DNA from: Candidatus Proelusimicrobium volucris
Lineage (GTDB): Bacteria > Elusimicrobiota > Elusimicrobia > Elusimicrobiales > Elusimicrobiaceae
Reading direction: 5' to 3'
DNA: 64,000 bases
Assembly: GCA_944324665.1 (NCBI GenBank)
Contig: CALUXD010000002.1
Span: 248,001-312,000, forward strand
Below, one piece after another: positions 24,796 to 29,172 of this stretch. Position numbers and translations under genes: made by a program. The notes beneath the pieces are model-generated. The model had not been told where the DNA came from. It saw only the letters and a list, made by a program, of their open reading frames with translations, and did not search any database. Numbering within the stretch: the stretch's first letter is position 1; every line of letters begins with the position of its first letter.

Positions 24796-25263
24796 TTATT
24801 CCACGATATATATGCTGTCGGTATTTTGTTTGCCCAAGGTGGAACATATCTTCTTGTCGTTTTTGGCGTCTGTGCCTATGGTGCATAGAATGTGGTCTTC
24901 GGTATAATTGCCGGATATTGTATATGTGTAGGATGAACCCGAAGTATGCGTAGCGGATACTGAAGAACCGCCAAGTACGTAAGAGAAGTTATCCGTAGTT
25001 GCCGCCGCGCCGCTTACGTTTACGTTTCTGCCGGAAATATCAAAGTCCAAATCTGTAAACGAAGTAGCATAAGAACCATTATTTTCATAATACTGTTGCT
25101 GTGCGGCTACCGTATTGGATATTATCCTTATCGCTTCCAGCGCTTTTCCCTTTTCCACGGAGGTTAAATACGACGGATACGCCATCGCCGCTAAACCCGC
25201 TATCAATAGAACTACGACCATCACTTCCAAAAGCGACATTCCTTTTTTGTTTAATTTTTTCAT
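24796..25263 (-). CDS. type IV pilin / pseudopilin
   Basis: This 155-residue prepilin has the short leader MKKLNKKG, cleavage after Gly8, Met as residue +1 and Glu13 at +5 in SLLEVMVVVLLIAG. A helix and a small beta domain follow, with two Cys (in HILCTIG and KKICSTLG) that may form the usual C-terminal disulfide. The mature protein would be inserted in the inner membrane and assembled into a pilus or pseudopilus. It starts one base after the glyS stop with GAGAGGG inside the end of glyS, so translation is coupled to the glycyl-tRNA synthetase operon. Its fold plan matches the N-terminal domain of the giant protein at 14390. Confidence 0.92.
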   Translation of the reverse strand: MKKLNKKGMSLLEVMVVVLLIAGLAAMAYPSYLTSVEKGKALEAIRIISNTVAAQQQYYENNGSYATSFTDLDFDISGRNVNVSGAAATTDNFSYVLGGSSVSATHTSGSSYTYTISGNYTEDHILCTIGTDAKNDKKICSTLGKQNTDSIYIVE

Positions 25264-28412: not shown

Positions 28413-28464
28413 TTGTTGTTTTTGCCTTTTTATGCTATAATAAATTATGTTAGCTTTAGCTAAC
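28413..28464 (+). promoter_or_regulatory. promoter with overlapping palindromic operator candidate
   Basis: TTGTTG (28413-28418), a 17-base spacer and an extended -10 box TGCTATAAT (28433-28441) form a good promoter. A perfect 6-4-6 palindrome GTTAGC-TTTA-GCTAAC (28449-28464) begins where transcription should start, the classic place for a repressor site. The gene follows at 28500 with a GGAGG ribosome-binding site. Confidence 0.55.
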
Positions 28465-28499
28465 TTTTAAATCAGATTATAAACTGTTTGGAGGTTTCA

Positions 28500-29108
28500 A
28501 TGAAAGTAAAGACGTTTTTTGTAGCGCTATGCTGCTTGGCTGCGGCGGGTGCGGCTTATTGCGCGGATATGGCGGCATTATATAAAAAGGCTTCAGCCTC
28601 TTTGAAGGGCGAAGAAAATTTTTTTGGCAGTGAGTTAGCCTCAGCTAACTTTATGGATAAACTTAATAATCTATATTATGCTTCCGATTATGTTAATTCT
28701 TCGGAATATTCAGAATTGGCATCTTTGAGAGCTGAGGAACTGAACGGAAGAATAATCAAGGAATTAAAGTCGGTGGATTTTGAAGAAGCTATTAAAACTG
28801 TTAAAGCCGATACGGAAGTAGCGCCTTTGCCCAAGACGATAGGGGGCGGCAAATTGGTCGGCATAAAAGTAAGGCGCTGGTTTGAGACTTCACGCAAAGC
28901 CGAATCTGAAATTAAAGCCAAACGTGCAATATTAAATGAACTAAAGAAAGATTTTTACGGATACGAGAAACGTTTTTCCTATTTAAATAAGGATTTAAAG
29001 ATTAAATTTTATATATCCCTTAGGCGTATGATTAAGCACATAAATGACGGCGGCTATTCTTCCGCGAAGAAGGTTGGCGATTATATAAACAGATATATTA
29101 TAAGGTAG
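28500..29108 (+). CDS. small secreted protein of unknown function
   Basis: This 202-residue protein has a signal peptide (about 1-21, ending AAYCAD). I chose the ATG at 28500 because GGAGG lies 5 bases upstream. The mature part is Lys/Glu-rich and predicted helical, with a Gly-Gly-Gly turn near 118 and a basic C-terminus. No motif I recognise. It forms a single-gene unit with its own promoter, operator candidate and terminator, suggesting regulated expression of a periplasmic protein. Confidence 0.75.
   Translation: MKVKTFFVALCCLAAAGAAYCADMAALYKKASASLKGEENFFGSELASANFMDKLNNLYYASDYVNSSEYSELASLRAEELNGRIIKELKSVDFEEAIKTVKADTEVAPLPKTIGGGKLVGIKVRRWFETSRKAESEIKAKRAILNELKKDFYGYEKRFSYLNKDLKIKFYISLRRMIKHINDGGYSSAKKVGDYINRYIIR
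28634..28649. repeat. second GTTAGC-N4-GCTAAC palindrome, inside the gene
   Basis: The same 6-4-6 palindrome as at 28449-28464 with a different spacer (CTCA) occurs 185 bases downstream, in the coding region for residues SELASAN. The pair could bind one repressor with looping; it could also be chance constrained by codons. Confidence 0.4.
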
Positions 29109-29139: not shown

Positions 29140-29172
29140 GAGGCGGAGAGTAAGCCCTCCGCCTCTTTTTTA
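29140..29172 (+). terminator. intrinsic terminator
   Basis: The 9-bp arms 29140-29148 and 29157-29165 are followed by a T run. It closes the gene at 28500-29108. Between here and 29426 I see no gene on either strand; a frame of about 98 codons there lacks a ribosome-binding site and runs through the next terminator. Confidence 0.85.

What the first reader, a model, noticed from the sequence alone, without database searches (positions are those of the whole stretch)
28413..28649. Twin GTTAGC-N4-GCTAAC palindromes at a secreted-protein gene
A perfect 16-base palindrome lies at the predicted transcription start, and the same half-sites in the same geometry recur 185 bases downstream inside the gene. 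One 12-base specified palindrome is expected far less than once in 64 kb by chance, so two so close are notable. This would fit a dimeric repressor acting at two operators, possibly through a loop.
Basis: partly seen in the sequence, partly recalled or inferred. Interest (0 to 1): 0.5.

Follow-up and report, generated by a model that had tools for sequence, protein, structure and literature searches.

The report
Metal-repressor operators at secreted-protein gene
The twin palindromes are most likely binding sites for a metal-sensing repressor of the DtxR/MntR family that also controls the feoB metal-importer gene in these bacteria, so the gene they flank probably makes a secreted protein when iron (or manganese) runs short.

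Summary
GTTAGC-N4-GCTAAC occurs at 28449-28464, 7 nt after a perfect TATAAT, and at 28634-28649 inside the gene; these are the only exact copies in the 1.5 Mb genome (0.12 expected). The 20 exact GTTAGY-N4-RCTAAC sites in 16 of 18 genus genomes lie at a promoter (16) or inside the same gene (4).

Best explanation: operators of a short DtxR/MntR-family metal-dependent repressor. The genome's only other site within 1 mismatch is at the feoA-feoB promoter; such sites recur at feoB in 11 of 15 genus genomes with feoB. The regulator gene lies beside the site in three genomes. In a second family the site precedes the regulator gene in 17 of 20 loci examined, with feoB following in 18. The geometry, TTAG-N6-CTAA, is that of the published IdeR single-dimer site. 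In genus g6 the site lies upstream of the -10, arguing against an RNA hairpin.

The in-gene site is exact in 4 of 5 close homologues, beyond codon chance. A loop is neither shown nor excluded. The metal is unsettled (Fe or Mn). The protein has no known family; relatives carry apparently unrelated secreted proteins at this operator. Binding is untested.

The parts
28413..28418 (+). weak -35-like hexamer TTGTTG, 17 nt before the -10
   Evidence: read by eye; not measured
28436..28441 (+). -10 box TATAAT
   Evidence: read; a perfect TATAAT starts 12-13 nt before the palindrome in 5 of 5 clade-A homologues
28449..28464 (.). operator 1, GTTAGCTTTAGCTAAC, at the predicted transcription start
   Evidence: conserved at the promoter in relatives
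28490..28494 (+). ribosome-binding site GGAGG
   Evidence: read by eye
28500..29108 (+). gene for a 202-aa protein of unknown family with a signal-peptide-like N-terminus (ATG start; one search lists the same frame from an upstream TTG)
   Evidence: no Pfam match, no NCBIfam match; profile matches in 8 of 235 genomes, all in the genus; hydrophobic N-terminus
28634..28649 (.). operator 2, GTTAGCCTCAGCTAAC, inside the coding sequence
   Evidence: exact in own, G011, G017 and G004, absent in G007; codon-shuffle P 0.005-0.008 in the three testable genes that have it
29140..29172 (+). likely intrinsic terminator (GC-rich hairpin then T run)
   Evidence: read by eye; not scanned with a tool

Best explanation
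Each palindrome is an operator for one dimer of a short (about 120-150 aa) DtxR/MntR-family repressor; in this genome the regulator gene is at G000:C2 near 54.5 kb, outside the window. When its metal, more likely Fe(II) than Mn(II), is plentiful, the metal-loaded dimer binds operator 1 over the start region and blocks RNA polymerase. The same repressor acts at the feoA-feoB promoter, so both units are switched on together when the metal is short. Operator 2, 185 bp further on inside the gene, probably strengthens repression by stopping elongating polymerase or by raising local repressor occupancy; a loop is possible but unsupported. Shown here: conservation, promoter position, co-occurrence and co-location with the regulator and feoB, and identity of geometry with the published IdeR single-dimer site. 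Inferred: actual binding, the metal, the direction of control, and the role of operator 2.
For: (1) The own genome has 3 sites at 1 mismatch or fewer: the two here and one starting 59 nt before the feoA-feoB ORF (FeoA and FeoB domains). (2) Sites at 1 mismatch or fewer lie just before feoB in 11 of 15 genus genomes with a FeoB match (coordinates; sequence); 2-mismatch sites do in 3 more. (3) PF02742 regulators are in 16 of 18 genus genomes, and the 2 without are the 2 without an exact motif. (4) The regulator gene is next to the motif in G005, G006 and G013. (5) In family f2, exact TTAG-N6-CTAA lies near the regulator start in 17 of 20 loci fetched, and feoB follows in 18 of 20; the 2 loci with no site (even at 1 mismatch) are the 2 without feoB. 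G117 has site, regulator and feoB in a row. (6) The geometry equals the proposed IdeR single-dimer consensus TTAGGNNNNCCTAA (PMC8464063, passages); IdeR boxes overlap the start and/or -10 (PMC10317159, passages). (7) In G018 (probably E. minutum) the site lies between a flavodoxin gene and ABC-transporter genes. (8) G019 and G021, which lack a PF02742 match, show no site at the feoB examined.
Against: No binding or expression data. The metal is not settled, and a regulator with the same ligand set answers to Mn (see rival). G008 has no site of 2 mismatches or fewer at its feoB or regulator gene. Sites without a detected regulator gene: G009 (2 mismatches, at feoB; 88% complete), G056 and G096 (91% and 72% complete), at the secreted-protein promoter. 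In g6, 62 of 66 genomes have PF02742 but only 23 of 66 have an exact motif, against 10 of 66 for the reversed control. The own regulator gene has only a TTAG-N5-CTAA near its start, one base short. In the search with a -10 box, 16 of 235 class genomes matched, only 2 of them outside the family.
Confidence: 0.82

Rival explanations
1. The palindrome acts as RNA: a 5'-end hairpin that stabilises the mRNA, with a similar hairpin inside the message.
For: In the window the predicted start is at the first base of the palindrome, and some half-site differences (T against G) would still pair in RNA.
Against: In 19 of 19 g6 secreted-protein genes with the site, the palindrome starts 21-22 nt before the -10, so it is not transcribed from that promoter. 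In G005, G006 and G013 the -10 abuts the palindrome, so the start would fall inside it. Sites at feoB and regulator genes share the DNA sequence in other contexts.
Confidence: 0.04
2. It is the operator of some other dimeric regulator that happens to co-regulate feoB, not of the DtxR/MntR-type protein.
For: No binding shown; G009, G056 and G096 have a site without a detected regulator gene.
Against: Physical linkage to the regulator gene in two families, co-occurrence in the genus, and match to the published IdeR single-dimer geometry.
Confidence: 0.08
3. The operator reading is right but the signal is manganese (or both metals), so the gene belongs to a Mn response.
For: The own regulator has the MntR-type Asp together with the DtxR-type Cys. 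P. gingivalis PgMntR has the same ligand set; in vitro Mn(II) increased its DNA binding while Fe(II) destabilised it, and it bound the promoter of the manganese transporter FB2 and not that of the iron transporter FB1 (PMC4805248, abstract; passages). So a FeoB-type gene can be a Mn transporter gene (that FB2 is a FeoB protein is recalled). The best solved relative of the own regulator is E. coli MntR.
Against: Targets are FeoA-FeoB, ferrous transporters by family name, and in G018 a flavodoxin, a usual substitute for ferredoxin in iron shortage (recalled). The site geometry is that of the iron sensor IdeR.
Confidence: 0.35
4. Operator 1 is real, but the in-gene copy is a by-product of the coding sequence.
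For: G007 (60% identical protein) lacks it; three more distant homologues have only a 2-mismatch version there. The other cargo families show no exact in-gene site.
Against: Given each protein and codon usage, an exact site arises with P 0.006 (own), 0.0049 (G011, close to own) and 0.0076 (G004). In G004 (33% identical) both half-sites changed together, C to T and G to A, with amino-acid changes, keeping the symmetry.
Confidence: 0.22

Closest known systems
IdeR/DtxR box and its single-dimer half site TTAGGNNNNCCTAA (PMC8464063; PMC10317159, passages of both)
   Same: TTAG-N6-CTAA geometry; overlap with the start and/or -10; a metal-uptake target
   Different: Fifth base of the half-site is T or C rather than G; extra outer G and C; no overlapping second dimer site (the full box is 19 bp for two dimers); the regulator is only about 120-150 aa, too short for the SH3-like third domain
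MntR (B. subtilis, E. coli) regulator and operators
   Same: Protein of similar length; best solved-structure matches; Asp, Glu, His, Glu, His ligands in the own regulator
   Different: Cys in place of MntR Glu99; target is feoAB and a secreted protein; MntR operator sequences were not compared (recalled only)
P. gingivalis PgMntR with the FB2 gene (PMC4805248, abstract and passages)
   Same: The same hybrid Asp/Cys/Glu/His ligand set and a FeoB-type target (that FB2 is a FeoB protein is recalled)
   Different: PgMntR carries two C-terminal FeoA domains, which the short Elusimicrobia protein lacks

Membership tests
DtxR/MntR-family regulator (for the proposed regulator) | N-terminal DNA-binding domain PF01325 and metal-binding/dimerisation domain PF02742 above the curated cut-off | tested here: met
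   Own regulator: PF02742 60.4 bits (cut-off 27), PF01325 42.5 bits (cut-off 26)
DtxR/MntR-family regulator (for the proposed regulator) | Conserved metal ligands | tested here: met
   Own regulator against MntR: Asp, Glu, His, (Glu to Cys), Glu, His. In the genus the Asp is kept in 7 of 16 regulators and is Asn in 9 of 16 (by eye), so the set varies
NCBIfam equivalogs 'MntR' and actinobacterial 'DtxR' | Score above the curated cut-off | tested here: not met
   97.5 bits against 153, 75.5 against 138, 50.7 against 350, 44.2 against 290; so not filed as MntR or DtxR proper
DtxR/IdeR single-dimer operator | TTAG-N6-CTAA dyad | tested here: met
   Both window sites
DtxR/IdeR single-dimer operator | Exact TTAGGNNNNCCTAA | tested here: not met
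   The fifth base is C at both window sites and C or T in the genus
DtxR/IdeR single-dimer operator | Overlap with the start or -10 of metal-uptake genes | tested here: met
   feoB promoters, positions inferred from -10-like boxes; regulator-feoB units
DtxR/IdeR single-dimer operator | Metal-dependent binding by the regulator | not testable with these tools
   needs a gel shift
Two-operator DNA-loop repression | Second operator with helical phase kept | tested here: inconclusive
   Four homologues with two sites: 17.6, 18.6, 18.2, 18.2 turns
5' mRNA hairpin | Palindrome transcribed in the related units | tested here: not met
   Upstream of the -10 in 19 of 19 g6 units; starts not measured

The most novel reading that the evidence does not exclude
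A conserved metal-starvation operator defines a regulatory slot for a secreted protein whose identity turns over between species. In the genus and its sister g6, this operator, besides feoB, drives at least five apparently unrelated secreted proteins: the all-helical family of the window, a second small family, a third pair, an ankyrin-repeat protein, and an HtrA-like fold in g6. These would be lineage-specific metal-starvation exoproteins, perhaps for scavenging or competition in the gut.
Probability: 0.45. Interest if true: 0.62.

Novelty: new member of a known kind. Interest (0 to 1): 0.45.

Why it matters
It predicts an iron (or manganese) regulon for a phylum on whose DtxR-type regulation two library searches listed no paper of relevance (listings only). 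It gives a short operator consensus that finds targets in unannotated genomes, and attaches a testable condition, metal shortage, to an uncharacterised secreted protein. It also fits the published suggestion that single-dimer DtxR/IdeR sites may turn up in other species (PMC8464063, passage), here as the main operator type of a lineage.

Tried and rejected
RNA hairpin: rejected because in g6 the palindrome is upstream of the -10. Chance: rejected. Scattered repeat motif: rejected, since genus genomes hold 0-2 exact copies, all at promoters or in the same gene. Function by family search: no Pfam or NCBIfam match for the window protein. Structure: all-helical model, mean pLDDT 76.2; best Foldseek PDB hit E 0.94, so no fold match. 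Homology between cargo families: hhalign of the window family (A3) against A1, A2 and A4 found only the signal-peptide region, probabilities 3.2, 0.5 and 2.8; the alignments are shallow (7, 6, 2 and 13 sequences), so very distant homology is not excluded. The search for related loci in genome contigs gave one relative only. One search missed most f2 regulator genes with a faulty pattern and was redone.

Limits of the counts: of the 23 of 66 g6 genomes with an exact site I looked at one locus each; 19 of 23 were at a secreted-protein promoter and 4 (G067, G074, G076, G090) were not; 6 further second matches in g6 were not looked at. G020's exact site is inside a coding frame. For the f2 regulator loci I looked at the 20 fetched plus G117, out of 38 f2 genomes with a PF02742 match. 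Of the 66 g6 genomes I scanned 18 feoB loci (17 of 18 had a 2-mismatch GTAAGG-N4-RCTAAC site next to the start codon); a nineteenth fetched locus (G054) I left out. G019 has two FeoB matches, of which one was looked at. For G019 and G021 a separate feoA upstream could hide the true promoter. The script printed no row for G001, G003, G010 and G014; their sites were counted from coordinates and seen. In G012 the longest frame of the dehydrogenase gene begins upstream of the site; I take a later start.

Full report
OBSERVATION. The spacer of the first is not self-complementary, so it is a 12-of-16-base dyad, not a perfect 16-mer. The exact motif has no other copy in the 1,496,100-base genome, where 0.117 are expected. 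The window's genome belongs with Elusimicrobiales: the contig of the nearest relative (91% identical protein, G011:C13, 26,203 bases, apparently the same record as L008) is titled uncultured Elusimicrobiales bacterium.

CONSERVATION IN THE GENUS. By protein search, 5 of 40 genomes, the own one included, had the gene; by profile, 8 of 235 genomes of the class, all in the genus. All 8 have the palindrome at the promoter, 7 exact and G017 with 1 mismatch. Relaxing the motif to GTTAGY-N4-RCTAAC gives 20 exact sites in 16 of 18 genus genomes, with the reversed-pattern control at 3 sites in 18 genomes. I looked at all 20: 16 are at a promoter with a -10-like box, and 4 are inside the gene (own, G011, G017, G004). 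At 1 mismatch the excess over the control vanishes overall, so weaker sites count only where their position is informative. Of the 16 promoters, 15 precede a gene whose product starts with a basic, then hydrophobic, signal-peptide-like stretch (judged by eye and by a simple hydropathy count; no signal-peptide program was run), and one (G012) precedes an opine-type dehydrogenase gene.

DNA, NOT RNA. The gap from the -10-like box to the palindrome varies from 0 to 7 nt in the genus. In 19 of 19 g6 secreted-protein genes with the site, the palindrome starts 21-22 nt before the -10, in the -35/spacer region. All these positions would occlude RNA polymerase, but the g6 ones are not transcribed from that promoter.

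WHO BINDS. A search of 235 class genomes for the site behind a -10 box matched 16 genomes; the two outside the family (G117, G150) have it at DtxR/MntR-type genes. PF02742 is present in 16 of 18 genus genomes, and the two without it (G009, G016; 88% and 64% complete) are the two without an exact motif. The regulator gene is adjacent to the site and the secreted-protein gene in G005, G006 and G013. In family f2, 18 of 20 fetched regulator genes are followed by feoB, and 17 of 20 have an exact TTAG-N6-CTAA between 160 nt before and 20 nt after the regulator start (start codon chosen by the script), while only 18 exact copies exist in all 47,989 positions of those loci; the two loci with no site even at 1 mismatch are the two without feoB. 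The own regulator matches MntR structures best (E. coli MntR, E 6.9e-13) and passes both Pfam cut-offs, but falls well below the NCBIfam MntR and DtxR equivalog cut-offs.

WHAT ELSE IT CONTROLS. The only other site with at most 1 mismatch in the own genome starts 59 nt before the feoA-feoB fusion ORF. Fifteen of 18 genus genomes have a FeoB match; in 11 of the 15 a site with at most 1 mismatch lies just upstream, in 3 (G004, G009, G015) one with 2 mismatches, and in G008 none. In g6, 17 of 18 scanned feoB genes have GTAAGG-N4-RCTAAC next to the start codon; G019 and G021, without a PF02742 match, have no site at the feoB looked at. Of four feoB loci from G018, G020, G023 and G105, three carry 2-mismatch GTTAGG-N4-RCTTAC sites and G020 only a one-mismatch TTAG-N6-CTAA. 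In G018 (its contig length is the one I recall for E. minutum) the exact site lies between a flavodoxin gene and two ABC-transporter genes followed by an opine-type dehydrogenase gene.

MATCH TO KNOWN OPERATORS. The IdeR box is TTAGGTTAGSCTAACCTAA, bound by two dimers, and a single dimer binds a half site for which the authors propose TTAGGNNNNCCTAA (PMC8464063 and PMC10317159, passages read). The window sites have the same TTAG-N6-CTAA frame with C instead of G at the fifth base (C or T in the genus), so they look like a single-dimer DtxR/IdeR site without being an exact instance.

METAL. The own regulator pairs the MntR-type Asp with the DtxR-type Cys; in 9 of 16 genus regulators that Asp is Asn (by eye). 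P. gingivalis PgMntR has the Asp/Cys set and binds both metals, but Mn(II) strengthened and Fe(II) destabilised its DNA binding, and its target is a manganese transporter gene, not the iron transporter gene FB1 (PMC4805248, abstract and passages). That speaks for Mn; the feoB and flavodoxin targets and the IdeR-like site speak for Fe(II). I put Fe(II) somewhat ahead; sequence alone does not decide.

OPERATOR 2. It is exact in 4 of 5 clade-A homologues and absent in G007; the three more distant homologues (G005, G006, G013) have a 2-mismatch version at the aligned place. Given protein and codon usage, an exact site anywhere in the coding sequence has P 0.006 (own), 0.0049 (G011, not independent of own) and 0.0076 (G004); G017 was not tested because its frame is interrupted. 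G004 (33% identical protein) changed both half-sites symmetrically along with the amino acids. Spacings do not share one helical phase. I read it as a second operator acting by roadblock or added occupancy, with about 0.75 confidence that it is functional.

CARGO. The protein has no recognised family, and a moderately confident all-helical model without a fold match. Other species carry other families at the operator: blastp at E 0.01 with single linkage splits 35 cargo proteins (one, G017, a 44-aa fragment) into 5 groups; hhalign finds no link between the window family and three others beyond the signal peptide; and the g6 family models as an HtrA-like fold (DegP, E 1e-5, TM-score 0.42), unlike the helical one. 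What these proteins do is unknown; my best guess is lineage-specific exoproteins used in metal shortage.

LITERATURE. Two searches of the held library, Elusimicrobi + DtxR (3 papers) and Elusimicrobi + iron + FeoB (9 papers), listed nothing on this regulon (listings only). Three further searches listed nothing on it either, though their lists were cut at 15 of 16, 8 of 9 and 6 of 78 papers.

Noticed in passing
L162:3186-8001 (G018) and L164:1572-5151 (G012): The same operator lies before opine-type dehydrogenase genes with a transporter nearby (ABC pair in G018, MFS in G012) and, in G012, a CbiX-like chelatase gene; this could be a metal-regulated opine metallophore or related pathway.
   Followed up: partly
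L006:1500-1520 (G017): The G017 copy of the window gene has its reading frame interrupted at a T-tract just before the in-gene operator; a draft-assembly error and slippage cannot be told apart.
   Followed up: no
L157:4172-4943 (G013 C26): One genome has the operator at two promoters; the second drives an ankyrin-repeat protein with a signal-peptide-like start.
   Followed up: partly
L176-L179, L183, L184 (f2, g10): In 6 of 20 regulator promoters looked at, two TTAG-N6-CTAA-like sites (one exact, one with 1 mismatch) lie 19 bp apart.
   Followed up: no
L094:4033-4560 (own regulator gene): Near the likely start of the own regulator gene is TTAG-N5-CTAA, one base short of the operator; a weak autoregulatory site or chance.
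   Followed up: partly
window 24796-25263 (-): Type IV pilin-like gene with weak ComP_DUS/Pilin_GH similarity, below the curated cut-offs.
   Followed up: no
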